Below the pieces are notes generated by a model. The model ran no database searches. It had not been told where the DNA came from and saw only the letters and a program-made list of their open reading frames with translations. From the NCBI GenBank assembly GCA_947175645.1, contig CAMWNP010000016.1, positions 1-60,952 on the forward strand: a stretch of DNA of 60,952 bases, given 5' to 3'. Within the stretch, counting starts at the first letter, position 1. Each line of letters starts with the position of its first letter. This DNA comes from an uncultured Porphyromonadaceae bacterium (lineage in GTDB: Bacteria > Bacteroidota > Bacteroidia > Bacteroidales > Muribaculaceae). Shown here one piece after another: positions 33,738-53,154 of the stretch. Made by a program: the position numbers and the translations under genes.

Positions 33738-34029
33738 GACCCGGTTCCACAATATATGTTAATGCTGAGGACACAAATCGCCGAGAGATTTTGGGCTTGT
33801 GATGAAGGAGCGTAGCCGTGGTTACGTGACTGAAGAACAAGGCAAAAAGCGCCGGTGAGATGCGGCGGTAAGGTAACTTTTTGCCACGTTACCATTGGCA
33901 CGGCCAATCGTCATGCATCTGCGTCCGCTTGTTTCGGTCACAATGCAACCGCATTGCTCTCTCACTGCGCGAACACATCTGCATAACGCTTGACCGCCTC
34001 AGTATTAACAAATATTGGGGAACCGGGTC
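33738..34029. mobile_element. Non-autonomous IS5/IS1031-type element (MITE-like), copy B
   Basis: A 292-bp element with the same ~34-bp inverted ends (GACCCGGTTCC...) and a TAA duplication (33735-33737 and 34030-34032). The right ~135 bp match copies A and C. The left interior (33772-33890) differs from copy A and carries unrelated-looking repeat sequence before the shared AAGGTAACTTTTTGCCAC. No coding capacity. Confidence 0.88.
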
Positions 34030-34078
34030 TAATAGCGAGTTTTGAATTAAATTCGCCTTGACTGGTAAAAAACGGTGA

Positions 34079-34239
34079 CGGTGTGTCATAATAAGCCATC
34101 TGCGTCGTTGCTTTCGGAAGCGGCTTCGGTCACATATTTAGGTATGCTCCCATCGTCCTCATCCTCAGCGCCTTGCATCTGACCTGTTCTGACACACCTT
34201 AGGAGGCTGTGCCAAATTTTTTTTTTTTGACACACCCTC
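34079..34239. repeat. Gene-terminal repeat, copy 1
   Basis: A 161-bp member of a four-copy family. From the right end it reads GAGGGTGTG-type hairpin (imperfect here, ~34202-34239), then a conserved ~110 bp block, ending in TTATTATGACACACCG at the left. The hairpin lies 33 bases after the stop of the small gene at 34273-34503. Confidence 0.85.
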
Positions 34240-34272
34240 ACTGTTCTTGTTAGGGGGAAATGTATTTCAATT

Positions 34273-34503
34273 TTATTGCTGATTCCCGGCGTAGGACAGG
34301 ATTTCGGGGCTTTGAACATCTACGCCATATTCCCTGGCGCGGGCGAGTATTGCCGTTGCAAGTTTGTGGCGGAGGTTCTCGGGACAGTAGCGGAAATATG
34401 CTTCGGCGGCGCGAACGTGGGCGGCGTCGGGCATGGGGTATTCACGTCTTTCAGGTAGTCCGAACATTGAGTCCGGGAGTTCTTTGCGTTCTTCAGTTGT
34501 CAT
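34273..34503 (-). CDS. Small DUF6582-like protein
   Basis: A 76-residue cytosolic protein: ELPDSMFGLPERREYPMPD, then AAHVRAAEAYFRYCPE and a helical C-terminus. The pattern of a short FxLP..R.YP..D..H...A segment followed by a helix resembles the small domain I know as DUF6582, found in phage-related and stand-alone proteins. The ATG at 34503 is preferred because upstream codons do not fit. Function unknown; followed by gene-terminal repeat copy 1. Confidence 0.55.
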   Translation of the reverse strand: MTTEERKELPDSMFGLPERREYPMPDAAHVRAAEAYFRYCPENLRHKLATAILARAREYGVDVQSPEILSYAGNQQ

Positions 34504-34608
34504 AGTTGTAAGATTTTTAAATCCGGTTTTCTGAAACCTGACAGATAAAAGTTTACAATATAACGATTTGACGCAAGATAATGTTGACAAATATTCAGGC
34601 TCCCGGTG

Positions 34609-35943
34609 TCATAGCCGGCGCAGGACCATGACTACAAGGATGGTTGTGACTATTGTTGCCAGGAAATCGCTTATGGGAAAAGATACCCAGACACCGTCGA
34701 GGCCATAAATCGAGGGGAGAATCAGCAGGAGGGGGATGAGGAACAGAACCTGTCTTGTCAACCCGAGGAATATACTCAAGGCTGCTTTTCCGAGCGACTG
34801 GAAGAGAGTGGTGCTGACAACCTGGAAGCCTACCATCCAGAAACAGATCATGGAGAGAGTCAGGGCGTTGCGGGATACGTTTATCAGGGTTTCATCCTTA
34901 GTGAACAGCCAGGCGATCCACTGCGGAATTGTCAGTCCGGCGATACATCCGAGAGTACAGACCGCTGTACCTGCCCCTACGGCAAGCCAGAATACTTTTT
35001 TTGCTCGTTGAGGCTGACCTGCACCGAAGTTGTATCCGGCTATAGGTTGCATACCCTGGCATATTCCCACAACCACGGATACCAGCATGCCGGTAATGGT
35101 TGAGAAAATTCCGGCTGCGGCCACCGCATTGTCACCACCTTCGCGCAAGAGAGTGTTGTTTATGACAATATTTATGAAGCATCCGGCTATGTTGACGATG
35201 CTTGGGGCGGCTCCGAGTGATACCATAGAGAAAACTTCATTCCATCTGAGCCTGAATGTGCCGGAGGTAAAGTGTAATGTGCTGGACTTTTTCATGAAGT
35301 GAATCAGAACGAACCACATTCCAATGAAAAGACCTATGTCAGATGCAATGGCTGCTCCTTTTATCCCCATTTTCAGGACAAAGATGAATATAGGGTCAAG
35401 AACCACATTGCATCCGGCTCCTATCAGCATTGTAATCATTGCCAGACGCGGGTAGCCTGATGATCGCATCACGTTGTTCAGACTGTACATGACGTTCATC
35501 ATCATGAGTCCCGGAAGGAAATAAGTGAGAAATTCTCGTGCGTAGGGCATGGTTGCTTCGCTTGCACCGAAGGCGCGGAGGATGTCATCCATGAAAATGG
35601 TGAACACAGTCAGGTAGATTGAAGCGTTGACTATCGTCAGTACAAGCGTATTGCCGAGAATTATCTCCGCTCCCCGCTGATTTTTGTTTCCCAGCAGGAT
35701 GGATGTACGCGCCGATGCACCAACCCCGACGAGAACACCTACAGCGGTGGATATATTCATCACCGGGAAGGTTATGGTCAGTCCGGCGATGGCGTCAGGC
35801 CCGACCGCATGGCCAATGAACATGCGGTCAACTATATTATATAATGAGACAACGAGCATTCCCACTATGGCGGGGAGTGAGTATTGCCATAGCAGCCGCC
35901 CGGGGCTTTGTGTGGTCAGTGCGGTTAGTTTAGTGGATGACAT
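34609..35943 (-). CDS. MATE-family multidrug exporter
   Basis: A 444-residue inner-membrane protein with 12 predicted helices in two MatE halves. Typical phrases are SLYNIVDRMFIGHAVGPDAIAGL near the N-terminus and GICQGMQPIAGYNFGAGQ at the start of the second half. Expected to export cationic drugs or metabolites using Na+ or H+. Stands alone between two gene-terminal repeats. Confidence 0.92.
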   Translation of the reverse strand: MSSTKLTALTTQSPGRLLWQYSLPAIVGMLVVSLYNIVDRMFIGHAVGPDAIAGLTITFPVMNISTAVGVLVGVGASARTSILLGNKNQRGAEIILGNTLVLTIVNASIYLTVFTIFMDDILRAFGASEATMPYAREFLTYFLPGLMMMNVMYSLNNVMRSSGYPRLAMITMLIGAGCNVVLDPIFIFVLKMGIKGAAIASDIGLFIGMWFVLIHFMKKSSTLHFTSGTFRLRWNEVFSMVSLGAAPSIVNIAGCFINIVINNTLLREGGDNAVAAAGIFSTITGMLVSVVVGICQGMQPIAGYNFGAGQPQRAKKVFWLAVGAGTAVCTLGCIAGLTIPQWIAWLFTKDETLINVSRNALTLSMICFWMVGFQVVSTTLFQSLGKAALSIFLGLTRQVLFLIPLLLILPSIYGLDGVWVSFPISDFLATIVTTILVVMVLRRL

Positions 35944-36008
35944 TATTCCGGAATGAGATTGGTTTGCCGGGGGGTGAGGGTAATGAATATTTTATTTAAT
36001 CAAATCGA

Positions 36009-36169
36009 CGGTGTGCAATAATAAGCCATCTGCGTCGTTGCTTTCGGAAGCGGCTTCGGTCACATACTTAGGTATGCTCACATCAGCCTCATCCTCAGCG
36101 CCTTGCCTCCGGCATATTCTGACAAACCTTAAGAGGGTGTGCCAAAATTTTTGTTTTTGACACACCCTC
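36009..36169. repeat. Gene-terminal repeat, copy 2
   Basis: A 161-bp copy. The hairpin is perfect here: GAGGGTGTG/CACACCCTC (36133-36169) around an A/T-rich loop, 28 bases after the TPR gene stop. The conserved block follows, with the far end at 36009 lying 65 bases upstream of the MATE gene. Confidence 0.88.
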
Positions 36170-36197
36170 GTGGATTTTATCTGATTAACCTATTGGA

Positions 36198-36899
36198 TTA
36201 TTCTGATTTTGCACTTGCTGCTGCTGACTGGATTTTTGCGCGTTCAACATATTTCTTTATGTCGATTCCGTAGTTTTCAGCGAACGCGGGATAGTTTTTC
36301 TGAATTTCTTCGTATGTTTCTGCCTCAGCCTTGAAGTTACCCTGCGCACGGTAAACACGAGCGAGTTTGCTCATGAAGAAAGGTGTGTAGTAGGGGTTTT
36401 TATCAGATTTTGAGATGGCATCCTTGAAAGCCGAAACTGCTTTGTCGAGTTGATCGAGGTTAGCGTAGCAGTCACCTTTGAGAGAGAATGCCGCAGCACC
36501 AATAACAGATTCTGATGCGCTGAATTTGTCAAGATAGTCAAGGGCACTCTGATAGTCTTCCTTGTCATAGAGCATGATCGCTGACTGGAGAGCCGCGCGG
36601 TTTTTGGCATCGCCGCTCATGTCGTTGGCAATGTTCATGTACTGGGCAAGCGCTACGGAGTCATTCCCGATTGCAAGTTGCACATCGGCTTTGCCTATTG
36701 CTTCGTTGCTTTTTTCAACTGCGGGATTGTGGATCAGATAAACGTAACCGATGATGAGTGCTACGATAATGGTTATTGCAACTGTGATCCAAACGATGAT
36801 CTTCTGGTTTTTCTGTACTTTTTCGGCAACATCAACCATGTGTTCGTTGAGTTGGTCGATGCTGGTTTCTGTTTCCTGTGTTTGAGGTTTTTTAGCCAT
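36198..36899 (-). CDS. Membrane-anchored tetratricopeptide-repeat protein
   Basis: A 233-residue protein. A short cytosolic N-terminus, one transmembrane helix (~37-58, IIVWITVAITIIVALIIGYV) and 4-5 TPR-like helix pairs (ALDYLDKFSASESVIGAAAFSL, LDKAVSAFKDAISKSDKNPYY) facing the periplasm. The architecture resembles YfgM, a periplasmic chaperone-associated factor; the assignment is by shape only. Monocistronic with its own promoter and repeat copy 2 behind it. Confidence 0.75.
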   Translation of the reverse strand: MAKKPQTQETETSIDQLNEHMVDVAEKVQKNQKIIVWITVAITIIVALIIGYVYLIHNPAVEKSNEAIGKADVQLAIGNDSVALAQYMNIANDMSGDAKNRAALQSAIMLYDKEDYQSALDYLDKFSASESVIGAAAFSLKGDCYANLDQLDKAVSAFKDAISKSDKNPYYTPFFMSKLARVYRAQGNFKAEAETYEEIQKNYPAFAENYGIDIKKYVERAKIQSAAASAKSE

Positions 36900-36937
36900 T
36901 TTATGTGATATTTTTTATTTGCTGAGTTTTGGATTTG

Positions 36938-36968
36938 CAAATTTACGATTTTATTTGGAAATATCAAA
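36938..36968 (-). promoter_or_regulatory. Promoter of the TPR gene
   Basis: Minus strand: TTTG (36965-36968), 19 bases, TAAATTTG (36938-36945). Leader of about 30 nt. Confidence 0.8.
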
Positions 36969-37115
36969 TTATTAGTTCATAATTTGTTAAATCAACCGCG
37001 GGGGAAATTCCCTTGCAGAAATCGGTTCTTCAGCATTTGTATCGACAGTAGTCAGTGGGTCATAACCGTCGGAAGCATCATTCGCCGATGGGAGTATCGG
37101 AATCAGGAGTCGTGA

Positions 37116-37763
37116 TTACTGATTGTTTTCCAGCCACTTAGTGCGCGTTGCGTCTGGCAGGTGCTTCACCGTGAAGTCGGAGAATACCACATTGAAGCCG
37201 TCCCCGTCGGGGCAGGCTGCCATCATGCCAACCTTTACCGGACGGTTCGCCTCCATCCAGGCATTGCGCATCATGGTGTATTCCTTGTCGTCGAAAGAAT
37301 AGAAAATCTCTATTGCGTCAAGGCGTCGTACGGCCTTGATCCAGATGTATTCAACCGGGCGGTCGAGGGTGATCACGCTCCAGTCAGAAGTGTGGTGGGT
37401 CACCACGGTACTCAGATTATACTTGCCATCGACAAATTCAATCCCTGTCTTGATGTAGTTCTCGTGGTCGATGCGTATCATCATTCCGGCCTGGTCGAAG
37501 CGCTCCTTGTAGTTGCCGGAAACCTTCACCTTTGCCTCAAACTCTCCGCCATATTCGGCATAATAGAATGGAGCGTCATCAACGGTGAAACCGTAGTGGG
37601 AGATGCGCCAGTAGTCGCTCTTCGGTGTTACGGACATGGAAAGCCTGCCGTTCTCAATCGACCAATCCGCCGGTTCGTTGAACCAGTTCATTTTTTCCAG
37701 TGTCTGAGCCGAAGCAAATTCCGCGCATATAGCGGCAGCAAATATCAGAATGAGTTTTTTCAT
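37116..37763 (-). CDS. DUF1349-type secreted beta-sandwich protein
   Basis: A 215-residue exported protein: signal peptide (1-19, ending FASAQ) then one concanavalin A-like sandwich of the DUF1349 family (WFNEPADWSIENGRLSMSV, FDQAGMMIRIDHENYIKTGIEF, RLDAIEIFYSFDDKEY). Relatives include the yeast protein called regulation of enolase 1 and are thought to bind carbohydrate. Probably periplasmic. Monocistronic. Confidence 0.82.
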   Translation of the reverse strand: MKKLILIFAAAICAEFASAQTLEKMNWFNEPADWSIENGRLSMSVTPKSDYWRISHYGFTVDDAPFYYAEYGGEFEAKVKVSGNYKERFDQAGMMIRIDHENYIKTGIEFVDGKYNLSTVVTHHTSDWSVITLDRPVEYIWIKAVRRLDAIEIFYSFDDKEYTMMRNAWMEANRPVKVGMMAACPDGDGFNVVFSDFTVKHLPDATRTKWLENNQ

Positions 37764-37800
37764 CTTGAAAGGTGTGTTGGGGTGATTAATGTTAACTTTG

Positions 37801-37808
37801 CAAAGTTA
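37801..37808 (-). promoter_or_regulatory. -7 box of the DUF1349 gene
   Basis: TAACTTTG on the minus strand. It forms half of a perfect 16-bp palindrome TAACTTTGCAAAGTTA (37793-37808), so an identical box faces the other way. Confidence 0.5.
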
Positions 37809-37963
37809 GATTATTCCACATCCATAAACAATGGTTATTTGTAACCAAAATGATCATGATCCGGAAAGACCTTGAATATCTTCTGACGGTTGTTTATTAT
37901 CCGTTAACGCTCTGTTGTCAACTTTTATTTATTGAAAAGCGTTAGATTTTAACTTAATTATAG

Positions 37964-37971
37964 TAACTTTG
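37964..37971 (+). promoter_or_regulatory. -7 box of the DEAD-box helicase gene
   Basis: TAACTTTG, 20 bases before the ATG at 37991; the leader would be only about a dozen bases. The upstream TTTG element is not clear. Confidence 0.5.
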
Positions 37972-37990
37972 TCTAATCAAATAACAGATT

Positions 37991-39745
37991 ATGAAAACAT
38001 TTGAAGAACTCGGAGTGAGTGAACCGCTTCTGAAGGCGGTGGAAGATATGGGATTTGAACAGCCTATGCCTGTTCAGGAAAAGGTTATACCGCATCTGCT
38101 GAATAATGACACTGATATTGTTGCTCTGGCACAAACCGGCACCGGTAAGACCGCTGCTTTCGGTTTGCCTGTTCTGCAGCGTATCAATCCTGAACTTCAT
38201 CAGCCCCAGGCACTTATTCTTTCTCCCACGCGCGAACTTTGTCTGCAGATTGCCGGAGATCTTGCCGATTTCTCAAAATATATGCCTGACGTTGAGGTGC
38301 TCCCCGTTTATGGCGGGTCAAGCATTGAAAGCCAGATAAGGGCATTGAAGAAAGGGGTGCAGATAATCGTTGCTACTCCGGGCCGACTCATTGACCTTAT
38401 CAACAGAGGTGTCGCTAAACTTGACGATGTCCACACGGTGATTCTTGATGAGGCCGATGAAATGCTCAATATGGGTTTCCTCGACTCAATCAACGATATT
38501 CTGGATCATGTTCCCGCTGACCGCAAGATGCTTATGTTCTCGGCCACAATGCCCAAGGAAATTTCAAAGATAGCCCAGCGCTACATGAACAATCCCACCG
38601 AGATTGTGGTGGGAACACGTAATGAAGGCGCTTCCACGGTAAAACATGTCTATTATATGGTTCACGCCCGTGATAAGATGCTGGCGCTGAAGCGTATCTG
38701 CGACAATACCCCCAATATTTACGCTATTGTGTTCTGCCGTACACGTAAGGAAACACAGGAAATCGCCGACAATCTTATCAGTGAGGGCTACAATGCCGAT
38801 GCCCTGCACGGTGATCTTTCTCAGCAGCAGCGTGACCTCACCATGAAGAAATTCCGTGATCGGGTGATAACAATACTTGTGGCTACTGACGTTGCTGCAC
38901 GTGGCCTTGATGTCGATGACCTTACACACGTAATCAATTACGGACTTCCTGAAGATACAGCAGTTTACACCCACCGCTCAGGTCGTACCGGACGCGCAGG
39001 AAAGGCAGGTGTGTCGGTAGCCATCATCCATCAGCGTGAGAAAGGACGCATGAGGGAGATAGAGCGTATAATCGGTAAGAAATTCGAGCGTAAGGATGTG
39101 CCTACTCCTGAACATATCATTGAAAAGCAGTTGTATTATCTGGCCGACCGTCTGGAGCGCGTTGAAGTCAACGAGCAGGAGATGGAGAAATATACCACGG
39201 GAGTAGTCAAGAAACTCGGATGGCTCTCTGCCGAAGATCTCATAAAGCGCGTGCTATCCCTTGAATTCAACCGTCTGCTGAACTATTACAAGGATGCCCC
39301 CACCATTGACTTCATTGATGAAAAACCCACCAAGAAAGATAAGGAGTTCCACAAGCCTGCCGACGAAAAGGAGAAAGACCGCCGTACGGCTGAAAAGGGT
39401 ATGGAACGGATCTACATCAACCTCGGAAAGTCCGACGGATTTTATGCCGGTAACCTGATTGACATGCTCAATCATCTGGTTAAGGGATCTCGCGTGGATG
39501 TAGGGCGGATCGACCTCATGCCAGGCTATTCCCTCTTCGATGTCAGAAAGAAGGATGCCTCACGAGTCGTTACCGGGCTGACCGGTGCGGAATTCGTGGG
39601 TAAAAGAGTCTATTGTGAGGTTGCTCAGGAAGATAAGGATTATAACCGTGCATCGGCACGGAAATCGCGTGAGGCCGCATCCGGTGATGCAGATGCCGAG
39701 GGCTTCAGGCGCCGTAAGTCAAAAAACGTAAAACGCAGAAGATAA
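37991..39745 (+). CDS. deaD: DEAD-box RNA helicase, DeaD/CsdA type
   Basis: A 584-residue ATP-dependent RNA helicase for ribosome assembly and RNA remodelling. RecA domain 1: AQTGTGKTAAFGLP (Walker A), PTRELCLQ, TPGRLID, DEADEML, SATMP. RecA domain 2: VFCRTRKE, VATDVAARGLDVDDL, HRSGRTGRAG. A DbpA-type RNA-binding domain (~465-540, MERIYINLGKSDGF) is followed by a basic tail ending RRRKSKNVKRRR. First of a run with DUF3256, xseA and xseB. Confidence 0.95.
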   Translation: MKTFEELGVSEPLLKAVEDMGFEQPMPVQEKVIPHLLNNDTDIVALAQTGTGKTAAFGLPVLQRINPELHQPQALILSPTRELCLQIAGDLADFSKYMPDVEVLPVYGGSSIESQIRALKKGVQIIVATPGRLIDLINRGVAKLDDVHTVILDEADEMLNMGFLDSINDILDHVPADRKMLMFSATMPKEISKIAQRYMNNPTEIVVGTRNEGASTVKHVYYMVHARDKMLALKRICDNTPNIYAIVFCRTRKETQEIADNLISEGYNADALHGDLSQQQRDLTMKKFRDRVITILVATDVAARGLDVDDLTHVINYGLPEDTAVYTHRSGRTGRAGKAGVSVAIIHQREKGRMREIERIIGKKFERKDVPTPEHIIEKQLYYLADRLERVEVNEQEMEKYTTGVVKKLGWLSAEDLIKRVLSLEFNRLLNYYKDAPTIDFIDEKPTKKDKEFHKPADEKEKDRRTAEKGMERIYINLGKSDGFYAGNLIDMLNHLVKGSRVDVGRIDLMPGYSLFDVRKKDASRVVTGLTGAEFVGKRVYCEVAQEDKDYNRASARKSREAASGDADAEGFRRRKSKNVKRRR

Positions 39746-39748
39746 CGA

Positions 39749-40396
39749 ATGAAAAAATTTCTACAGTTACTGCCGCTGCTACTGCTCCTTCCGTTAACCG
39801 CATGGGGGCAACTGACCGCAGAACAGGCATTCATTGATGCACCTTCGCAGTTGTTTCCCGGTATAAGGAGAATCACCCGCATGGACATGGTCGATTACTT
39901 CAAGAGCGGGTCGGACCGTGGCAGCACAAACCGCTTCGGAGGACTCTCGCGTGTGCTTTCCCTGACACCTGAAAGCATTGTGGTGGAAGTGGCGGAAAGC
40001 AATATTGTGGAAAAGCAGATTGCTCTTGACTGCATGGCAAAGGGTGATACAGCCATCATCTTCATAACCAATATAGCCACTCCTGCACCGGATGGCGCAG
40101 TGAAGGTGTACAATTCCCGCTGGGAGCCGTTTGCCGGAACCACCTTTGTGGAGCCCACACTCAAAGACTGGGTGAAGAAAGGGGCTTCGAAACAGCAGAT
40201 GCAGGAGGTGATGGGCTCCGTGCCGTTTGCCATGGCACGCTATAGTTTTGACCCTCAGACCCGTCTCCTCGTCCTTACTCCTTCGTTTACGGAATTCGTT
40301 CCTGAGGATGTAATGGCTAAAGTGAAGGATTCGCTCTGTTCGTCAATCAGTTACAAGTGGAACGGCAAACGTTTCGTACTCTATCAGAAATCATGA
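39749..40396 (+). CDS. DUF3256-family exported protein
   Basis: A 215-residue protein with a clear signal peptide (KFLQLLPLLLLLPLTAWG) and a single globular domain of the DUF3256 type (EQAFIDAPSQLFPGI, RMDMVDYFKSGS). The family is known from Bacteroidales only as a neighbour of xseA; no function is established. Starts 3 bases after deaD and overlaps the xseA ATG (ATGA). Confidence 0.78.
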   Translation: MKKFLQLLPLLLLLPLTAWGQLTAEQAFIDAPSQLFPGIRRITRMDMVDYFKSGSDRGSTNRFGGLSRVLSLTPESIVVEVAESNIVEKQIALDCMAKGDTAIIFITNIATPAPDGAVKVYNSRWEPFAGTTFVEPTLKDWVKKGASKQQMQEVMGSVPFAMARYSFDPQTRLLVLTPSFTEFVPEDVMAKVKDSLCSSISYKWNGKRFVLYQKS

Positions 40397-41691
40397 CAGA
40401 CCCTGCCGGCTCACTGACCTTGCTGGAGTATAACTCCATGATCTCCGACCTCCTTGACCGCGATGAACTGCGTGACGTGTGGGTGACGGCGGAGACTGTT
40501 GATGTAAGCCGGCGTAATCACTGTTATCTGGAACTGATTCAGAAAGATGACCTGGGGCGGACCGTAGCACGGGCGCGGGCGGCGATATGGGCGAACCAGT
40601 TCTACCGACTGGATGCAAAGTTTACGCATGCCACCGGCCGACCGTTCGGGAGCGGAATGAAGGTGATGGTGAAACTGTCAGCGACTTATCACCCGCAATA
40701 CGGACTGTCGCTGGTCATTACAGACATTAATCCTGAGTTCACTCTCGGCGACAAACTGCGTCGCCGGCAGGAAATGATTGAGCGTCTGACGCGTGAGGGT
40801 ATCATTGATATGAACCGCGAACTGGAAATACCCACTGTGGTTCAGCGTATTGCGATCATCTCATCACCCACTGCCGCAGGCTACGGCGATTTCATGCATC
40901 AGTTGGAGAACAACAGCAGCGGTCTGCGCTTCGTGACACGCTGCTTCAACGCACCAATGCAGGGCGATGCCGCTCCGGGCGGCATAATAAATGCCCTTGA
41001 TGCAATAGCCGCTGAAGAGGATCAGTGGGATGCGGTGGTGATAATCCGCGGCGGTGGGGCCACAGATGATCTCTCGTGCTTCGAAGACTATGACCTTGCG
41101 GCGAACATAGCGCAGTTTCCGTTGCCGGTAATCATAGGCATCGGTCACGAACGTGACATAACTCTTCTGGACTATGTTGCCGCCATGCGGGTGAAGACCC
41201 CCACGGCAGCCGCTGAATGGATTATTGAACGCGCTGACTTCATGCTCGCCACAGTGACAAATCTGGGTATCCGCATACGTACGGCAGTGGCGGACTCACT
41301 CCAACTGGCCGCATCGCGTCTGGACCGCCGGGCAGCCGAACTCCCACTTGTGACACGCGGTGTACTGCTGGCCTGTGACCGCCATCTTGAAAAGATAGCC
41401 ATGGCATTGCCTGCAGAGGGGAAAGCCTCGGTTGAGCGTGAGACCACTAATCTTCAGTCAGCCATGCGCATGTTGCGTCTGTCAATGGATAATATCATCA
41501 ACGCAGAGCGTGACCGTCTGCGCTCACAGAAGCAACTGGTTGACGCATATTCTCCGTCATCGGTATTGCGCCGCGGTTACTCTTTCACTACCTGCGGCAG
41601 CAGTCTTGTAACCTCATCAAAAGAACTCAATCCGGGCGATGTCATCACCACTCACCTGGCGTCCGGGAAAATTAAATCCGTTGTAAAATGA
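40393..41691 (+). CDS. xseA: Exodeoxyribonuclease VII large subunit
   Basis: A 432-residue subunit of the single-strand-specific exonuclease. An N-terminal OB fold (VWVTAETVDVSRRNHCYLEL) precedes the catalytic domain (RIAIISSPTAAGYGDF, VVIIRGGGATDDLSCFEDY, GIGHERDITLLDYVA, KTPTAAAEW) and a coiled coil ending with RGYSFTT. The ATG at 40393 overlapping the upstream stop is preferred over 40357, which would lie deep inside DUF3256. Coupled to xseB by another ATGA overlap. Confidence 0.94.
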   Translation: MTDPAGSLTLLEYNSMISDLLDRDELRDVWVTAETVDVSRRNHCYLELIQKDDLGRTVARARAAIWANQFYRLDAKFTHATGRPFGSGMKVMVKLSATYHPQYGLSLVITDINPEFTLGDKLRRRQEMIERLTREGIIDMNRELEIPTVVQRIAIISSPTAAGYGDFMHQLENNSSGLRFVTRCFNAPMQGDAAPGGIINALDAIAAEEDQWDAVVIIRGGGATDDLSCFEDYDLAANIAQFPLPVIIGIGHERDITLLDYVAAMRVKTPTAAAEWIIERADFMLATVTNLGIRIRTAVADSLQLAASRLDRRAAELPLVTRGVLLACDRHLEKIAMALPAEGKASVERETTNLQSAMRMLRLSMDNIINAERDRLRSQKQLVDAYSPSSVLRRGYSFTTCGSSLVTSSKELNPGDVITTHLASGKIKSVVK

Positions 41692-41891
41692 AATCCGTTA
41701 AAGAACTATCCTACACCGAGGCAGTCGCCGAACTCGAATCAATCCTTGAACGACTGAAAGGACAGAATGTGGAAATAGACAAACTCGCTGCCGAAGCAAA
41801 GCGTGCCACAGAACTCATCCGCGAGTGCCGGAGCCGGCTGACCGGTGTTGCCAAGGAACTTGATGATATCCTGGAGGATAACCAAGCCTGA
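41688..41891 (+). CDS. xseB: Exodeoxyribonuclease VII small subunit
   Basis: A 67-residue helical protein with the family pattern ELSYTEAVAELESILERLK and ...EAKRATELIRECRSRL. Multiple copies bind the XseA coiled coil. Overlaps xseA by 4 bases. An imperfect hairpin with a T run at ~41882-41916 may end the operon. Confidence 0.92.
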   Translation: MKSVKELSYTEAVAELESILERLKGQNVEIDKLAAEAKRATELIRECRSRLTGVAKELDDILEDNQA

Positions 41892-41957
41892 CAACTTATT
41901 TGGCATGGTTTTTGTTATTATTGGAAAAGAAAGTATAACATTTAAATTGATAGAAAA

Positions 41958-42524
41958 ATGGAAAAGATTCAACCCGGAAAATATGTGGAATTGGGTTATG
42001 ACCTGTATCAGGTTAATCCCGATGGAACTGAAACCCTTGTACATCAGACAGATGTGGCTGACCCCGAGAAGATTATCTTCGGTGTTACCCGCGGTATGAT
42101 CCGTCCGCTTGAAGAGGCTATCGACGGTCTGGAAAAGGATGGTGAGTTTGATGTTAAGGTGAAGGCAGCCGAAGCGTTCGGAGAATATGATAAAGAACAG
42201 ATTGCAGAACTTGAACGTGACATATTTGTTGTTGACGGAAAGTTTGACGAGGAGGTTATCAAGGTTGGCGCTGTGGTGCCTATGATGACTGCCGATGGTT
42301 TCCGTATCAACGGTCTGGTGAAGGAGGTTACCCCCACACACGTTGTTATGGATTTCAATCATCCTCTTGCCGGCAAGGATGTTCGTTTCAAAGGTAAAAT
42401 TCTTGCCGTCAGGGATGCAACACCGGAGGAACTGAAACCGGAAGGTGGCTGTGGCTGCGGTTGTGACCATGATCACTGCGGCTCTGACGATGGCTGCGGT
42501 TGTGGCGACGGCTGCTGCAAATAA
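41958..42524 (+). CDS. slyD: SlyD-type FKBP peptidyl-prolyl isomerase
   Basis: A 188-residue cytosolic proline isomerase/chaperone. The FKBP core (GKYVELGYDLYQVNPDG, FGVTRGMIRPLEEAIDGL) is interrupted by the IF chaperone flap (~75-135), then NHPLAGKDVRFKGKILAVR. The last ~25 residues are a Cys/His/Asp/Gly-rich tail with eight Cys and two His, expected to bind nickel or zinc as in E. coli SlyD. Followed after 22 bases by gene-terminal repeat copy 4. Confidence 0.93.
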   Translation: MEKIQPGKYVELGYDLYQVNPDGTETLVHQTDVADPEKIIFGVTRGMIRPLEEAIDGLEKDGEFDVKVKAAEAFGEYDKEQIAELERDIFVVDGKFDEEVIKVGAVVPMMTADGFRINGLVKEVTPTHVVMDFNHPLAGKDVRFKGKILAVRDATPEELKPEGGCGCGCDHDHCGSDDGCGCGDGCCK

Positions 42525-42546
42525 ATACAGTTAACAATATAAAGAG

Positions 42547-42702
42547 GAGGCTGTGTTCAAAATTCAAAATTTTGGCACAGCCTCTTAAGGTGTGTTAGAA
42601 TCGGTTAAGCGCTGAGGATGAGGGCGATAGAAGCATACATAAGTATGTGACTGAGTCCGAATTCCGAAAGCAACAACACAGATGGCCTATTATGACACAC
42701 CG
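42547..42702. repeat. Gene-terminal repeat, copy 4 (inverted)
   Basis: A 156-bp copy in the opposite orientation to the other three, matching the opposite strand of the gene before it (slyD). Hairpin GAGGCTGTG/CACAGCCTC (42547-42584), with compensated stem changes relative to the GAGGGTGTG copies. Then the conserved block, ending TATTATGACACACCG. It fills the gap between convergent slyD and the esterase. Confidence 0.86.
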
Positions 42703-42726
42703 CCTTTGTTTTTCGCAGTTGCGGGG

Positions 42727-43569
42727 TTACTCGTTGCCTTCGTTGTTAAATGCTTCGTTGAAGAAGAGTAGGTGATAGAGAAGCGAGTTGCGCCAGTAGG
42801 GCCATGAGTGCTTCCCCGGGCGCACAATGTAGTCATGATCTATCCCGTACTTATCCATTTCCTGATGTAGGTTATTGTTGACTTCGGCGAAAAAGTCATC
42901 TTTACCGCAGTCAAAGAGAATGTTCTGCTTGCCGTTCTCCAGCGTTGGAACAAGGTTGATAACGGTGTGCTGTTCCCAGACTTCGGGGTTCTCCTCCTTT
43001 TTCCCCAGGCGTTTGGCCATTTTCCAGTTCTTCGGAAAGGGTCGTATGTCAACCCCGCCGCTCATGCTTGCCACATTTTTAAATATGTCGGGGTGACGCA
43101 GACCAAGCCATAGCGCACCGTGACCACCCATGCTCAGGCCGGATATGGCCCGTTTTGAAGGTGAAGGAATGGTGGGATAGTTGGCATCAATGTAGGGGAT
43201 GAGATCTTTCACGAAGAATGATTCCATCTGCATGGACGGGTCTATGGGAGAATCCCAGTACCAGGAGTCACGTCCGTCAGGCATGACGATAATCATGTTG
43301 TAGTGGTTCGCGGTTTCCTTCAGGCGCGGCACACGCTCTATAAAGTTCTTGTAGTCACCGCTGTAGCCGTTCAGAAGATATACGGTTGGAAACTTCGCAT
43401 CGGGATTGGTAAGAGCGGAGTCGGGAAGGTATACGGTTACCTTCATGGGTGTTGAGAGGAGTTTGGTGGCCACAACGGCAGTGTCGACATTGGCGGAGAA
43501 TTTGCCGGCGCCCGTCATTGCTATGAAACACAGCATGACGAGAGTCAGTGACATAGTGATTCTTTTCAT
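42727..43569 (-). CDS. Exported esterase, alpha/beta hydrolase (esterase D/XynZ type)
   Basis: A 280-residue hydrolase. A signal peptide (1-~22) precedes a putative-esterase domain: TVYLLNGYSGDYKNF, MPDGRDSWYWDSP (oxyanion region), nucleophile elbow GLSMGGHGALWLG, and catalytic-type His in PGKHSWPYW. Relatives release acyl groups such as feruloyl or acetyl esters from plant glycans; the substrate here is unknown. Starts 12 bases after the PLP enzyme gene in the tsaB operon, an odd pairing. Confidence 0.82.
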   Translation of the reverse strand: MKRITMSLTLVMLCFIAMTGAGKFSANVDTAVVATKLLSTPMKVTVYLPDSALTNPDAKFPTVYLLNGYSGDYKNFIERVPRLKETANHYNMIIVMPDGRDSWYWDSPIDPSMQMESFFVKDLIPYIDANYPTIPSPSKRAISGLSMGGHGALWLGLRHPDIFKNVASMSGGVDIRPFPKNWKMAKRLGKKEENPEVWEQHTVINLVPTLENGKQNILFDCGKDDFFAEVNNNLHQEMDKYGIDHDYIVRPGKHSWPYWRNSLLYHLLFFNEAFNNEGNE

Positions 43570-43581
43570 GATATTGGACTC

Positions 43582-44754
43582 TTATTGAAGTGCTTGTTTG
43601 ATATCTTCAAAGATGTCGTCTACATCTTCCAGCCCTACTGACAGGCGGATTGTAGTTTCCTTGACATCCATGGCTTTACGCTGATCCGGGGTGAACGGAC
43701 CGAATATGGTTGATGCCGGATGTATGGCTAAAGTCTTATTGTCGAACAGGTTAGTGGCGCGCTTTACGAGTTTGAGCGCATTAAGGAAGTCGTAGCATGC
43801 CTGTTCGCTTTCAAGGTCGATGGTCATCATGGCACCTGCCGAACCACCGAACTGACTTACCATGCGGGTGTGGAAGGGATTGTCTGTAAATCCCACGAAG
43901 TTGACCTCCTTGATCTGAGGGAGGGTGCGGAGTAGATTGGCCAGGCGGACAGTATTTGCCGACTGCAGGGCGTAGCGGGCCTCCAGATTCTCCAGTCCTA
44001 AGGTCTGCATATAGGCTACATGCGGGGTCATGTATGCGCCGAAATTCATGAGAGTGTCGCGGCGAAGACGCTCGTCGAAATCCTTGATCGTGCCGTAGTC
44101 AATTATCAGACCTCCGATGGTGGTGGCGCCCCCGGATATATATTTGGTGCTGGAGACAACTTCTATGTCAACCCCCAGAGCATGGGCGTCAAACTGCGTG
44201 AAAGGAATGGCAGTTGTGTCAGCCACCAGTGGAGTATTGTGTTTATGCGCTATCCGGGCGAGCATTGCAACATCCGCCACTTCGAGTTGGGGATTGGTGA
44301 TGATTTCAAAGAACAGGGCGCAGGTGTTGTCGTCGACGGCTTTCTCTACCTGCTCCTCATCAAGAAGATCCACTGCTCGACATTCCACTCCGAAGCGCGT
44401 CATTGTCTTTGACAGCAGGGCGAACGTGTTTCCGAACAGGTGGCGTGAGGTAACGATGTTTCTGCCTGCGGAAGCAAGTGTCAGGATTACGTTGCTGATT
44501 GCCGCCATACCGGAGTTTACGGCCACTACATCACGCGCTCCGGTTAAGGCTTTCACCCTGTTCTCCAGATGGATAACCGTGGGATTAGTGATTCTTGAAT
44601 AGTCCGGTTCGTTGATTCGTCCGCAGAACGCATCGGCCATCACGGATGCGTTGTCAAACTCGTAGGCGTCAGTGTGGTACACAGGCATTGCGATGGCCCC
44701 GTAGGCATCGCGGTGGGGGAAGGGCGACTGTATGGCAATGGTTGATTTTTTCAT
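43582..44754 (-). CDS. Cys/Met-metabolism PLP enzyme (transsulfuration family)
   Basis: A 390-residue fold-type I PLP enzyme. DYSRITNPTVIHLENRV and NSGMAAISNVILTLAS bind the cofactor phosphate, VADTTAIP carries the PLP-nitrogen Asp, and SSTKYISGGATTIGG contains the Schiff-base Lys. Candidates are O-acetylhomoserine sulfhydrylase, cystathionine gamma-synthase/lyase or methionine gamma-lyase, which sequence inspection cannot separate. Its ATG overlaps the tsaB stop (TAATG). Confidence 0.85.
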   Translation of the reverse strand: MKKSTIAIQSPFPHRDAYGAIAMPVYHTDAYEFDNASVMADAFCGRINEPDYSRITNPTVIHLENRVKALTGARDVVAVNSGMAAISNVILTLASAGRNIVTSRHLFGNTFALLSKTMTRFGVECRAVDLLDEEQVEKAVDDNTCALFFEIITNPQLEVADVAMLARIAHKHNTPLVADTTAIPFTQFDAHALGVDIEVVSSTKYISGGATTIGGLIIDYGTIKDFDERLRRDTLMNFGAYMTPHVAYMQTLGLENLEARYALQSANTVRLANLLRTLPQIKEVNFVGFTDNPFHTRMVSQFGGSAGAMMTIDLESEQACYDFLNALKLVKRATNLFDNKTLAIHPASTIFGPFTPDQRKAMDVKETTIRLSVGLEDVDDIFEDIKQALQ

Positions 44755-45458
44755 TATGATAGTTTTTTCAGTAGCGGATTGGTTGATTTGACAGCCTGAT
44801 ATTCCTTGAGATATTCCGGAACGCTATAAGCCAGATCAAGGAAGTCACGGCGTGAATAAGCGAGTTCTGACAGCGGTGTCATGTCCGACGCCAAAGGAAC
44901 TATGTCGCTGATGAAACGTGCGTTGGGGCTTGTGATCAGTGATTTCGCTTTATCTGAGCCGTTGCCGAAGAACAACACGGTGCCTTGATTGAGCCATCCG
45001 GCGTAACTTTCAGGACTAAGTATCATGGGGGAGGGTGGAAGCAGAGGAGTCAGGGCAAGGTCATAGACGGCTGTGTAGACCTCCATCCGGCGCGCATCGA
45101 TCATGGGAGCATACATCGCATCGGGCTCTACTTCCGGGAGAAACATCACGTGGGTCGCCATGATTTTCAGGGTGGAAATCCCAATCAATGGAATATTCAG
45201 GGCATAGGCGAGACCCTTCGCTTCAGAAAGCCCGATGCGGAGACCGGTGTAACTTCCCGGTCCTATGCTGACGGCTACTGCTTCAATCTCCATCTCATGG
45301 TCATGTGCATAGTCAAGGCAATCCTTGATGAAGCCGCTGAGGCAGGTGGCATGATTCTGTCCGGAAAAACTCTCACGGTGAACCAGCACCATTCCCTCGG
45401 CTGAGAGCGCTGCCGAGCAGACTGATGTTGAGGTTTCTATATTGATGATGACAGCCAT
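44754..45458 (-). CDS. tsaB: tRNA threonylcarbamoyladenosine protein TsaB
   Basis: A 234-residue ASKHA-fold protein that partners TsaD in t6A37 synthesis. The N-terminal INIETSTSVCSAALS and SIGPGSYTGLRIGLSEAKGLAYAL are the family signatures. The ATG at 45458 is chosen since the core begins right there; the longer frame to 45518 adds a non-conserved stretch. First gene of a three-gene operon. Confidence 0.92.
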   Translation of the reverse strand: MAVIINIETSTSVCSAALSAEGMVLVHRESFSGQNHATCLSGFIKDCLDYAHDHEMEIEAVAVSIGPGSYTGLRIGLSEAKGLAYALNIPLIGISTLKIMATHVMFLPEVEPDAMYAPMIDARRMEVYTAVYDLALTPLLPPSPMILSPESYAGWLNQGTVLFFGNGSDKAKSLITSPNARFISDIVPLASDMTPLSELAYSRRDFLDLAYSVPEYLKEYQAVKSTNPLLKKLS

Positions 45459-45528
45459 TATCTTAGGAATGAAAAGGTCGGTTATAACAGTGGAGATAAT
45501 AATGATGTGAGTCCACAAAATTTTTCTG

Positions 45529-45536
45529 CAAATTTA
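45529..45536 (-). promoter_or_regulatory. -7 box of the tsaB operon
   Basis: TAAATTTG on the minus strand, about 70 bases before the tsaB ATG and 22 bases from the plus-strand box for yicC. Confidence 0.55.
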
Positions 45537-45558
45537 CGGAAAATTCCCGCTAATTTTT

Positions 45559-45566
45559 TAAATTTG
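45559..45566 (+). promoter_or_regulatory. -7 box of yicC
   Basis: TAAATTTG, 23 bases before the yicC start. With the minus-strand box at 45529-45536 it forms a back-to-back divergent promoter pair in which the two upstream regions overlap. Confidence 0.55.
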
Positions 45567-45589
45567 CAAAAAAATAAATTCACCTGACG

Positions 45590-46465
45590 ATGTTATTATC
45601 CATGACAGGCTTCGGCAAGGCGGTTGTCGAAGCGCCAACCAAGAAATTCACAGTTGAGATCAAGTCGCTCAATTCAAAGCAACTTGATCTTTCGGCGCGT
45701 ATTCCCCAGGCATATCGTGACAAAGAACTTGACATCCGTGGCTTCATAGCCTCGCAACTGGAGCGGGGCAAGGTTGACCTGTCGGTTTACGTAGAGTCGG
45801 TGGCGGGAGAGGATCTGGCCACTCTGAATCTGGAGGCTCTGGCGCAGTACAAGACGCAGATTGAGCAGATGTCGCAGAAACTTATGCTTCCGTTGCCCGC
45901 GGATTGGTATGCCACCCTGCTGCGTATGCCCGACGTGATGAAATCCGACACCGTGGTGCAGCCCGATGATCAGGAGATCAAGGCGTTGATGACGGCAGTG
46001 CATGATGCGGTTGCCGAACTCATGCAGTTCCGCCGCAAGGAGGGGCGTAAACTCGAGGAATTCTTCGCCGTGCGCCTTCAGCGTATAAGTGAATTGCTTG
46101 ATCAGGTTCCACGTTACGAAAATGAGCGCATTGTGAAGATACGCTCACGGATTGAGGAACAATTAGGAAAGATCAACAAGGTTGAGTATGACCGTGCGCG
46201 TCTGGAACAAGAGATGATATATTACATCGAGAAACTGGATATCAACGAGGAAAAACAACGGTTGAGCCAGCATATCGAATATTTCCACGAGACCATGGAA
46301 AGCGGACGCGGTCAGGGTAAGAAACTCGGTTTCATCGCACAGGAAATGGGTAGGGAAATCAACACTCTGGGTTCAAAATCCAATCACGCCGAAATGCAGA
46401 TTCTGGTTGTGAAGATGAAGGATGAACTCGAGCAGATCAAGGAACAGGTCCTGAACGTGATGTAA
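45590..46465 (+). CDS. yicC: YicC-family endoribonuclease
   Basis: A 291-residue YicC/YloC protein: LSMTGFGKAVVEAPTKKFTV at the N-terminus, SLNSKQLDLSARIP, and the C-terminal DUF1732 region KLGFIAQEMGREINTLGSKS. Members cut RNA and affect small-RNA turnover in E. coli. Upstream of gmk, the arrangement seen in many phyla. Confidence 0.92.
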   Translation: MLLSMTGFGKAVVEAPTKKFTVEIKSLNSKQLDLSARIPQAYRDKELDIRGFIASQLERGKVDLSVYVESVAGEDLATLNLEALAQYKTQIEQMSQKLMLPLPADWYATLLRMPDVMKSDTVVQPDDQEIKALMTAVHDAVAELMQFRRKEGRKLEEFFAVRLQRISELLDQVPRYENERIVKIRSRIEEQLGKINKVEYDRARLEQEMIYYIEKLDINEEKQRLSQHIEYFHETMESGRGQGKKLGFIAQEMGREINTLGSKSNHAEMQILVVKMKDELEQIKEQVLNVM

Positions 46466-46537
46466 GAAGCAGTTCCCGGGAATTCGGACAAATAGGATTT
46501 GTGCGAGTCGCCCTCCCCCGTCATCAAACTAAATCAA

Positions 46538-47107
46538 ATGGAAGGTAAAGTAATAATTATATCAGCACCCTCGGGGTGTGGCAAGAGTACTATAATCAAC
46601 GCCATTCAGGAGCGGGGAAACGTCAGCATGGAGTTCTCCGTATCAGCCACCAACCGCGCTCCCCGGCCCGGTGAAAAGGATGGCGTGAACTATCATTTTT
46701 TAACGACTGAAGAGTTCAATGACCTGATAGCGCGTAACGCGTTCGTTGAATATGAGGAGGTCTATCCGGGCCGTTACTACGGGACTCTCCGTTCAGAAGT
46801 GGAGAACCGCTGTGCCGCCGGACACAACGTCATACTTGACATAGATGTCAGGGGTGGGGTGAACGTGTCAAGAATTTTCGGCGATAAGGCGGTATCAATT
46901 TTCATAATGCCTCCCAGTGTGGAGGAACTGCGCCGGCGCCTGGAAAAGCGTGGCACGGATTCATCCGAGGTCATTGACCAGCGTGTGGGCAAGGCTGAAT
47001 TCGAGATATCGTTCGCTCCGCAGTATGACCACCGTGTGGTGAATGACAATCTGGAGAAAGCGATTGAGCAGACTGAGAAAATCATATCGGACTTCATAAG
47101 CCATTAG
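46538..47107 (+). CDS. gmk: Guanylate kinase
   Basis: A 189-residue kinase phosphorylating GMP to GDP. P-loop ISAPSGCGKST, GMP-binding SATNRAPRPGEKDGVNYHF, DIDVRGG. The ATG at 46538 puts the P-loop at its usual place; the frame extends to 46499 with unrelated residues. Confidence 0.95.
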   Translation: MEGKVIIISAPSGCGKSTIINAIQERGNVSMEFSVSATNRAPRPGEKDGVNYHFLTTEEFNDLIARNAFVEYEEVYPGRYYGTLRSEVENRCAAGHNVILDIDVRGGVNVSRIFGDKAVSIFIMPPSVEELRRRLEKRGTDSSEVIDQRVGKAEFEISFAPQYDHRVVNDNLEKAIEQTEKIISDFISH

Positions 47108-47119
47108 CCCGTCCGGAAG

Positions 47120-47731
47120 ATGGAAGATGGGAAAAAGATAGGAATTTTCGGGGGCTCGTTCAACCCTGTTCACCGGGGACACCTGATGCTCGCGCAATGG
47201 CTTCTCCACGAAATGGATTTCGATGAAATCTGGTTTGTGGTGTCTCCTTCCAATCCACTGAAACATCAGGCTGACATGGCAAACGAGGAACAACGCCTGG
47301 CAATGGTCAGGCTGGCACTGGCGGGACATCCCCGGCTACGCGAGTGTGACATAGAATTCTCCATGCCCCGTCCGTCCTACACCATCAACACGTTGCGTGA
47401 ACTTTCACTCCGGTATCCGGGTTATAATTTCACACTGATAATTGGTGCCGACAACTGGCAGGTGATCGACCTGTGGCGGTCTGCCGATGAGATTATCAGG
47501 GACTACGGGATAATAGTGTATCCCAGAAAAGGGAGCGACATCAACCACGATAATCTTCCGGAGGGGGTTAAGTTGAGCAATGCACCCGTGATAGAAATCT
47601 CATCATCAATGATACGCGAAGTCATTCCCCGGTGGGGTGTGCCTGACTATTTCCTGACACCTGAAGTCAGTGACTACATCATAAACAATAAACTCTATAA
47701 TTATGGAAACACCCTCGATCATCAACACTAA
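47120..47731 (+). CDS. nadD: Nicotinate-nucleotide adenylyltransferase
   Basis: A 203-residue nucleotidyltransferase making NaAD from NaMN and ATP. GIFGGSFNPVHRGHL holds the HxGH-type site (HRGH), IIGADNW contacts the base and ISSSMIRE is the second signature. 12 bases after gmk; its 3' end overlaps DUF5063 by 29 bases. Confidence 0.94.
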   Translation: MEDGKKIGIFGGSFNPVHRGHLMLAQWLLHEMDFDEIWFVVSPSNPLKHQADMANEEQRLAMVRLALAGHPRLRECDIEFSMPRPSYTINTLRELSLRYPGYNFTLIIGADNWQVIDLWRSADEIIRDYGIIVYPRKGSDINHDNLPEGVKLSNAPVIEISSSMIREVIPRWGVPDYFLTPEVSDYIINNKLYNYGNTLDHQH

Positions 47732-48227
47732 CTCAATAGCCTTCATAGGCTTGTGCAACGAATATTGCACCACTCTGGAAAATGCCCGCGAATCAACCCG
47801 TGAGGAACTGGTGGAGCGGATGCTGAACCTGTTGCCACGCATGTATATAGCCGCCACTGACCTGAAGGTGAACATGATTGAGCCTGAGGAACCTTACATC
47901 GAAGGTTCGCTTGACGAGGATTATTACGAGGCGATACGTCGCAATGTCGAAAACCTGCTCGGTCCGGACGATATATATCTGGAGGTATTCGAGGAAGATA
48001 TGAAATACTCCGATACCCCGGTTTCGGCATCGATTTCCGAGGGACTCGCCGACATATTCCAGGTGACTTTCAATTTTATCAGCATGGTGAAGGACGCTCC
48101 TGACGAGATTGTCGGTCTGGGACTGATAGCCATCCGTGATGATTTCCGCGACTACTGGGGTGCCACACTCTGCAACGTGCTCCGCGCACTACACCATCTC
48201 CGCTACAGGTTCGGAGAAACGGAGTAA
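47703..48227 (+). CDS. DUF5063-family protein
   Basis: A 174-residue helical cytosolic protein of the DUF5063 type (FIGLCNEYCTTLENA, LLPRMYIAATDL, DDFRDYWGATLCNVLRALHHLRY). No signal peptide; function unknown. The family is common in Bacteroidetes near nadD, and the 29-base overlap with nadD indicates coupling. Confidence 0.75.
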   Translation: METPSIINTNSIAFIGLCNEYCTTLENARESTREELVERMLNLLPRMYIAATDLKVNMIEPEEPYIEGSLDEDYYEAIRRNVENLLGPDDIYLEVFEEDMKYSDTPVSASISEGLADIFQVTFNFISMVKDAPDEIVGLGLIAIRDDFRDYWGATLCNVLRALHHLRYRFGETE

Positions 48228-48272
48228 TCTCAAAAACTGAACATAAACACGTTATCACACATAAATACCCTA

Positions 48273-50515: not shown

Positions 50516-50551
50516 CAACAGCATTAATAAACCAATCATACATATTATAAT

Positions 50552-52027: not shown

Positions 52028-52036
52028 AAAAAGGAT

Positions 52037-52924: not shown

Positions 52925-52965
52925 TCACGCGGGAAAGTGTGGACTCCCCGCAGATTCAGACAAGA

Positions 52966-53125
52966 CGGTGTGTCATATTAAGCCATCTGCGTCGTTGCTT
53001 TCGGAAGCGGCTTAGGTCACATACTTAGGCATGCTCCCATCAGCCTCATCCTCAGCGCCTTGCATCTGACCTATTCTGACAAACCTAAAAAGGGTATGAC
53101 AAAATTTTTTGCCACACCCTTTTTT
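52966..53125. repeat. Gene-terminal repeat, copy 3
   Basis: A 160-bp copy. The hairpin here is AAAAAGGGTATG/CCACACCCTTTTT-like with one mismatch (53090-53125), 29 bases after the dcp stop, then the conserved block, ending CGGTGTGTCATATTAAG at 52966. It separates convergent WYL and M3 peptidase genes. Confidence 0.86.
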
Positions 53126-53154
53126 AAGTTATCAGGTAATATGCCTGATGTCAA

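What the first reader, a model, noticed from the sequence alone, without database searches (positions are those of the whole stretch)
34079..34239. Dispersed 160-bp repeat, each copy attached to the 3' end of a gene (copy 1)
Four copies (34079, 36009, 42547, 52966) share one architecture: stop codon, 22-33 bases, a terminator-like hairpin, a conserved ~110-bp block, and an end TTATTATGACACACCG that is the inverse of the GTGTGTCA near the hairpin. Orientation always follows the adjacent gene, including the inverted copy after slyD. A mobile element that carries or becomes a terminator would explain this.
Basis: seen in the sequence. Interest (0 to 1): 0.7.

Follow-up and report, generated by a model that had tools for sequence, protein, structure and literature searches.

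The report
Jumping repeat that replaces gene terminators
A short jumping DNA repeat in a gut bacterium sits just behind dozens of genes, apparently in place of the hairpin that marked the gene's end, and brings a hairpin of its own; a similar insertion habit is known from one staphylococcal transposon.

Summary
Real and genome-wide. The four copies belong to a ~163-bp family: a ~37-bp hairpin plus a ~120-bp imperfect palindrome. Of 55 copies or remnants examined in this genome, 48 carry the hairpin; 36 of those 48 lie 11-50 nt (median 26.5) behind a co-oriented stop codon. Orientation mostly follows the gene, not always: in tandem gaps 16 follow, 2 oppose.

The fold is supported by covariation in 51 copies and is stronger on the gene strand. 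The hairpin and both outer ends match IS1182-family insertion sequences found in two genomes of the same bacterial family. In a sister species, 11 of 12 corresponding gene ends without the element have a strong hairpin of their own, mostly at a similar distance (controls 82 of 200). A T-tract abuts the element's far end in 23 of 40 copies.

Best reading: a non-autonomous IS1182-type element that replaces terminator hairpins, as reported for IS1272, and supplies its own. Not shown: termination, or transposition. No IS1182 transposase was found in this genome, and the element's hairpin usually lacks a T-tract of its own (6 of 48).

The parts
34203..34239 (-). copy 1, hairpin (left end); 33 nt behind the stop of the small ORF 34273-34503 (DUF6582-like, below Pfam cut-off)
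34077..34202 (-). copy 1, body: imperfect palindrome ending TTATTATGACACACCGTC
36133..36169 (-). copy 2, hairpin; 28 nt behind the stop of the TPR-protein gene 36198-36899
36007..36132 (-). copy 2, body; folded alone the gene-sense strand of the whole copy has z = -5.94, the other strand z = -3.06
42547..42584 (+). copy 3, hairpin; 22 nt behind the stop of the slyD-like gene 41958-42524 (NCBIfam peptidylprolyl isomerase match below cut-off)
42585..42704 (+). copy 3, body with a 7-base deletion; convergent esterase-like gene 42727-43569 follows
53091..53120 (-). copy 4, hairpin (diverged, still paired); 34 nt behind the stop of the M3 peptidase gene 53155-55278
52964..53090 (-). copy 4, body; at the corresponding gene end of the sister species G008 a body copy sits behind a differently spelled hairpin

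Best explanation
The repeat is a non-autonomous mobile element (MITE) whose two outer ends are those of IS1182-family insertion sequences. It is inserted where a gene's terminator hairpin stands and takes that hairpin's place, leaving the upstream A-rich and downstream T-rich flanks, without an obvious target duplication. It brings a strong hairpin that then stands at the usual terminator distance behind the stop codon, and its body folds into a second long hairpin that ends at the host's T-tract. The swap therefore probably leaves the gene with a working terminator. Later the body can be lost by internal deletion while the hairpin is kept. Shown by sequence: the family, its fold, its position, its shared ends with IS1182 elements, and host hairpins at corresponding empty sites. 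Inferred: replacement as the mode of insertion (as reported for IS1272), mobilisation by an IS1182 transposase, and termination.
For: (1) Ends: IS1182-family elements in two genomes of the same family (L260, L261; NF033551 475 and 462 bits, cut-off 270) carry a hairpin at both ends. Their left end GAGGCTGTGTCAAAAT is letter for letter that of the C-type copies here; their right end shares 14 of the first 18 bases with the element's right end in L260 (my count). (2) Position: 36 of 48 hairpin-bearing copies are 11-50 nt behind a co-oriented stop, median 26.5; strong host hairpins at sampled sister-species gene ends start at median 22. Convergent gaps hold 21 of 48 copies against 13% of 484 gaps in the sister species. 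(3) Empty sites: 11 of 12 corresponding gene ends in G008 without the element have a hairpin below -12 kcal/mol, controls 82 of 200, Fisher p = 0.0006. Cleanest case L048: flanks match up to the feet of a 31-base host hairpin. (4) T-tract at the far end in 23 of 40, against 3 of 40 twenty bases further out. (5) Fold: 93.4% of cells paired, 19 of 56 pairs changed on both sides, 76 such cells against 21.5 in shuffles; 42 of 47 hairpins and 38 of 44 bodies fold better on the gene strand. (6) Literature: IS1272, an IS1182-family member, replaces stem-loops without target duplication (PMC5678879, abstract and passages) and hits terminators (PMC4923244, passages).
Against: No IS1182 transposase was found in this genome (0 matches). 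The body has no detected similarity to an IS1182 interior, so its origin is open. A T-tract follows the element's own hairpin in 6 of 48 copies only and the terminator scan flagged none of the four copies. IS1272 inserts in both orientations (PMC4923244), so the 16:2 bias needs selection or some asymmetry. Two of the 12 empty sites (L005, slyD) are the two sides of one host hairpin, L015's hairpin belongs to another repeat and L079's starts at +2, so the clean number is smaller. Flank matching over 16 of the 18 sites is weak: right p = 0.008, left p = 0.057, and L048 carries much of it. Complementarity of a copy's own flanks is no better than mismatched (p = 0.41). Intergenic DNA of the two species is too diverged to prove replacement at most sites.
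Confidence: 0.7

Rival explanations
1. The element inserts anywhere in intergenic DNA and only insertions behind genes, hairpin first, survive selection; host terminators decay afterwards because they are redundant.
For: Orientation bias 16:2 in tandem gaps and near absence from divergent gaps (1 of 48) look like a selective filter; IS1272 itself shows no orientation bias (PMC4923244, passages).
Against: It does not predict that empty sites are enriched for strong hairpins (11 of 12 against 82 of 200), nor the T-tract touching the far end (23 of 40 against 3 of 40), nor the flank match up to both feet of the host hairpin at L048.
Confidence: 0.17
2. A structured 3'-UTR RNA (mRNA stability element or source of a small RNA) spread by duplication, with termination a side effect.
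For: Strong covariation in hairpin and body and better folding on the transcribed strand.
Against: No Rfam family matched the window except three tRNAs at gathering scores; the body is readily deleted while the hairpin stays in the sister species; ends shared with insertion sequences. It is not exclusive of the best explanation.
Confidence: 0.07
3. Compensatory changes come from quasi-palindrome correction (template switching between the arms), so the covariation says little about selection.
For: The copy L079_6433 has a 5' arm that is a copy of the element's far end in inverse; at the copy-4 site the two species have wholly different but still paired arms.
Against: It does not explain why G-U rather than A-C mismatches are found on the gene strand (49 against 17 in the two folds), though shared ancestry of the copies inflates that count.
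Confidence: 0.25
4. A REP/REPIN family moved by a RAYT (Y1) transposase.
For: The genome has one Y1_Tnp gene, C12:65251-65592.
Against: No copy of the element lies in the 3.3 kb around it; it has a different repeat of its own, GGCGTCC/GGACGCC.
Confidence: 0.02

Closest known systems
IS1272 / TnSha1 (IS1182 family, staphylococci; PMC5678879, PMC4923244)
   Same: IS1182-family ends, target is a stem-loop, often a gene terminator; target hairpin lost; no target duplication.
   Different: Those are autonomous or transposase-carrying elements in Firmicutes, inserting in both orientations; here a ~163-bp element without a gene, dozens of copies, hairpin-first orientation.
IS1182-derived MITEs of Methanosarcina acetivorans (ISMac2 group, 160 and 169 bp, 14 and 7 copies; PMC3852290, table seen in passages)
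   Same: Same size class, gene-less, IS1182 family as partner.
   Different: One of those two is listed with 4-bp direct repeats; no link to gene ends or terminators was stated in the passages I saw.
SPRITE (pneumococcal rho-independent terminator-like element; named in PMC10969869, passages)
   Same: Dispersed small repeat that resembles a terminator.
   Different: No IS1182 ends stated in the passage; sequence not compared here.
BrickBuilt and other MITEs of Porphyromonas gingivalis (PMC4596501, passages)
   Same: Gene-less intergenic elements with terminal inverted repeats in the same bacterial order (recalled).
   Different: Larger, with a minisatellite; in the case described there it did not disrupt the host terminator.
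REP/REPIN with RAYT
   Same: Dispersed palindromes between genes.
   Different: The genome's RAYT is flanked by another repeat.

Membership tests
MITE | short, gene-less, multi-copy, with unrelated flanks | tested here: met
   ~163 bp; 55 copies or remnants examined; aligned copies with sharp borders
MITE | terminal inverted repeats | tested here: met
   left GAGGGTGTGTCAAAA, right (inverse) GRCGGTGTGTCATAA, 12-13 of 15 identical by my count
MITE | autonomous partner with the same ends in the genome | tested here: not met
   no IS1182 transposase in G000; a partner-type end occurs in the same genus (G003, L256, L257) and whole elements in the family (L260, L261)
IS1182 family (as a derivative) | ends like those of IS1182-family elements | tested here: met
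IS1182 family (as a derivative) | IS1182 transposase or remnant inside | tested here: not met
   no gene in the element; no interior similarity seen to L260/L261
Stem-loop-replacing transposition (IS1272 type) | target is an inverted repeat that is lost on insertion | tested here: inconclusive
   11 of 12 empty sister-species sites have a strong hairpin; exact junction clear at L048, weak elsewhere
Stem-loop-replacing transposition (IS1272 type) | no target-site duplication | tested here: inconclusive
   no consistent direct repeat seen by eye in the flanks; not tested statistically
Intrinsic terminator | stable hairpin on the transcribed strand | tested here: met
   mean -22.6 against -18.5 kcal/mol for the other strand, 42 of 47 better
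Intrinsic terminator | T-tract right after the hairpin | tested here: not met
   6 of 48 after the left hairpin; 23 of 40 after the body's end; none of the four copies flagged
Intrinsic terminator | transcripts end there | not testable with these tools
   needs Term-seq or a reporter
REP/REPIN-RAYT | repeat flanks the RAYT gene | tested here: not met

The most novel reading that the evidence does not exclude
Terminator swapping as a mobile-element strategy: the element finds host terminators by their hairpin shape, deletes the hairpin, and supplies its own folded end next to the host's T-tract, so that each insertion is nearly harmless and dozens of host terminators in one genome are now transposon-derived. 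Afterwards the body is shed and the hairpin stays as the gene's terminator.
Probability: 0.45. Interest if true: 0.75.

Novelty: new variant of a known kind. Interest (0 to 1): 0.6.

Why it matters
If right, it is a clear case of selfish DNA whose target is a shape (a gene's terminator hairpin) and which repairs the function it destroys. It would extend stem-loop-replacing insertion, so far described for IS1272 in staphylococci in the papers I saw, to a gene-less element in gut Bacteroidales, and would explain why a dispersed repeat sits at the 3' end of dozens of unrelated genes. It also offers many natural before/after pairs of terminators for testing termination in Bacteroidota.

Tried and rejected
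RAYT/REPIN origin: the single Y1_Tnp locus carries another repeat. Insertion into the loop of a host stem with both arms kept: own-flank complementarity no better than mismatched flanks, p = 0.41, 40 copies, three further copies dropped for want of an end anchor. Known RNA family: window scan gave three tRNAs only. Phage or plasmid origin: a core pattern and a hairpin pattern gave 0 viral contigs each, and the IS-end query no plasmid match. Autonomous partner in G000: none by NF033551 or PF13751. Internal sequence of the G243 element: only its end was found, at 9 places, the interior is missing from that assembly and no IS1182 transposase was found there, so its assignment rests on end similarity to L260/L261. 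Literature: ten searches; among their listings and the passages I read, no gene-less IS1182 element replacing terminators was described. The library holds open-licence papers only.

Full report
OBSERVATION. The four copies exist at the stated places and align over their whole length, mean column identity 82% with flanks included. Reading from the gene, each copy is: stop codon, 22-34 nt, a hairpin of 30-38 bases, TTAAGG or a variant, a ~120-base body, and the end TTATTATGACACACCG or a variant. A BLAST with copy 1 gave 41 places in the own genome (3.17 Mb, 139 contigs), a floor because 40 of 88 candidates were scored. A pattern for the core gave 29 + 17 matches, reversed control 0 + 0. After a profile search of all stretches held, 57 rows remained; I dropped one duplicate and one lone diverged hairpin, leaving 55 copies or remnants: 48 with the hairpin, 7 without (four bodies alone, three half copies). 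Two further hairpins, C7:52123 and C23:84, were seen later and are not in the counts. Among 34 full copies the median identity is 89% and the best pair 99.4%.

POSITION. Genes were called with a small hexamer script trained on long ORFs of the window. Of 48 hairpin-bearing copies, 36 have the hairpin 11-50 nt behind a co-oriented stop, median 26.5. By gap type 21 are convergent, 16 tandem same, 2 tandem opposite (L063_2175, L077_3001), 1 divergent (L078), and 8 have one neighbour not called; 16 of 18 gives p = 0.0013. In the sister species G008 13% of 484 gaps of at least 40 nt are convergent and 17% divergent. Among convergent copies the hairpin side is the nearer one in 12 of 21 with one tie, so the hairpin side is favoured only weakly there; medians are 27 and 73 nt. 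Strong hairpins at 82 of 200 sampled G008 gene ends start at median 22 nt.

STRUCTURE. The alignment of 51 copies (37 of this genome, 7 of G008, 7 of four other genomes) supports a left hairpin and one long imperfect hairpin for the body: 93.4% of cells paired (slid controls 35-43%), 19 of 56 pairs changed on both sides (shuffles 9.2; slid controls 13-15), 76 such cells (shuffles 21.5; slid 15-20), no shuffle of 500 reaching any of the five measures. RNAalifold alone proposed 28 pairs, 16 with double changes. The copies are related, so these counts are not independent events. The gene strand folds better in 42 of 47 hairpins and 38 of 44 bodies; that could partly be inherited from a founder. 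Copy 1 folded alone is not remarkable on the other strand (z = -1.19), copy 2 has z = -5.94 on the gene strand and -3.06 on the other.

ENDS AND RELATIVES. The outer ends are inverted repeats of each other. The same hairpin occurs in other genomes of the family: 20 of 298 match an exact hairpin pattern, and 38 of 298, in 12 of 30 genera, match copy 2 by BLAST, with only two candidates scored per genome. In the genus 3 of 9 genomes match, this one included: G008 with 28 matches and G005 with one. Contig lengths tie G008 to CAMWVE01 and G253 to JAAVFQ01, metagenome assemblies labelled Porphyromonadaceae and Bacteroidales; that the family is Muribaculaceae is my recall. In G243 nine different flanks run into one repeat that begins with this hairpin. 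Its end sequence led to other genomes, two of which, L260 and L261, hold a complete IS1182-family transposase. Those elements, 78% alike over 1.87 kb, have a hairpin at both ends. Their left end GAGGCTGTGTCAAAAT equals the left end of the C-type copies here, and the L260 right end shares 14 of the first 18 bases with this element's right end (my count). An IS1182-type end also occurs twice in G003, of the same genus. In this genome no IS1182 transposase was found. The body is not explained: body-only elements occur in several family genomes, and I saw no link to the IS1182 interior. Six of the nine G243 insertions are 5-49 nt behind a co-oriented stop, one of them with a weak gene score, and the IS in L260 begins about 27 nt behind a stop.

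EMPTY SITES. I held about half of G008 (1,190,675 bases). Of 55 sites 34 had a match on at least one side; 18 passed the filter (co-oriented left gene within 60 nt, alignment reaching its end). Six of the 18 have an element-type feature in G008, judged by eye: hairpin alone or with remnants (L003, copy 2, L065, L073), a body with another hairpin (copy 4), and an inverted copy (L155). Of the other 12, 11 have a hairpin below -12 kcal/mol within 80 nt, against 82 of 200 control ends (Fisher p = 0.0006). L005 and slyD share one G008 hairpin, L015's belongs to another repeat, L079's starts at +2, and L014 has none in that range. Distances agree in the clean cases, e.g. 25 and 22 nt (slyD), 27 and 26 (L048), 27 and 24 (L009). 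At L048 both flanks match up to the feet of a 31-base host hairpin; at L018 the T-rich TTTCGTTTTT behind the host hairpin is found directly behind the element. Over 16 of the 18 sites (copy 4 and L155 left out) flanks match their own partner better than others on the right (p = 0.008) and not quite on the left (p = 0.057).

FLANKS. In 40 copies with anchored ends, positions +2 to +14 are 50% T against 28% further out, and A is frequent at -8 to -10. A T-tract (5 of 8) abuts the far end in 23 of 40, 3 of 40 twenty bases further out; it follows the left hairpin in 6 of 48. T content after the far end (0.54) exceeds that after strong host hairpins (0.35), but there the fold often includes the T-tract in the stem. 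The terminator scan of 34000-53500 found 22 sites (shuffles 17.9) and none in the four copies.

MECHANISM. IS1272, of the IS1182 family, was reported to replace target inverted repeats of 21-85 bp without target duplication (PMC5678879, abstract and passages); TnSha1/IS1272 inserts in hairpins, several of them terminators confirmed by RNA-seq, in either orientation (PMC4923244, passages). A survey lists IS1182 among families over-represented between convergent genes (PMC9208149, passages). The same mode explains the place, the host hairpins at empty sites, the retained T-tract and the lack of an evident duplication here. The orientation bias is then best put down to selection after insertion. 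In the sister species many copies have lost most of the body and kept the hairpin, which fits a hairpin kept for function.

VERDICT. Not a categorically new kind: IS1182-derived MITEs are known (PMC3852290, passages), and so is stem-loop replacement. The combination, a gene-less element that apparently swaps dozens of host terminators for its own, is a new variant as far as my ten searches and the passages read show.

Noticed in passing
G000 C12:65251-65592 (L105): One RAYT-type Y1 transposase gene with its own palindromic repeat GGCGTCC/GGACGCC, unrelated to this element.
   Followed up: partly
L159, L068, L070, L071 (contig ends C2, C13, C17, C120): Another insertion sequence, ends GGTAACCATCCGAAACTA / TAGTTTCGGATGCTTACC, appears to sit in the centre of the body's palindrome in several copies, at nearly the same position.
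   Followed up: partly
L079 6433-6596: In this copy the hairpin's 5' arm reads as the inverse of the element's far end, which suggests copying between inverted arms.
   Followed up: no
L078 3035-3324 (C14): A tandem arrangement: a full copy followed directly by a second body without a hairpin.
   Followed up: no
L154 2882-2993 (C3:116382-116493): A body-only element with both ends CGGTGTGTCATAATAA as perfect 16-base inverted repeats.
   Followed up: no
window 42547-42704 and L005 1501-1661, against G008 C3 around 13.4-13.6 kb: In G008 the slyD-like gene and the gene of L005 are convergent around one hairpin; here they are apart and each has its own element, so a rearrangement broke at this site.
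   Followed up: partly
window 52964-53120 and L112: Shared element site in two species with wholly different but still paired hairpin arms next to a well conserved body.
   Followed up: partly
L256, L257 (G003): IS1182-type ends at two contig ends in a species of the same genus; the elements' interiors lie beyond the contigs.
   Followed up: no
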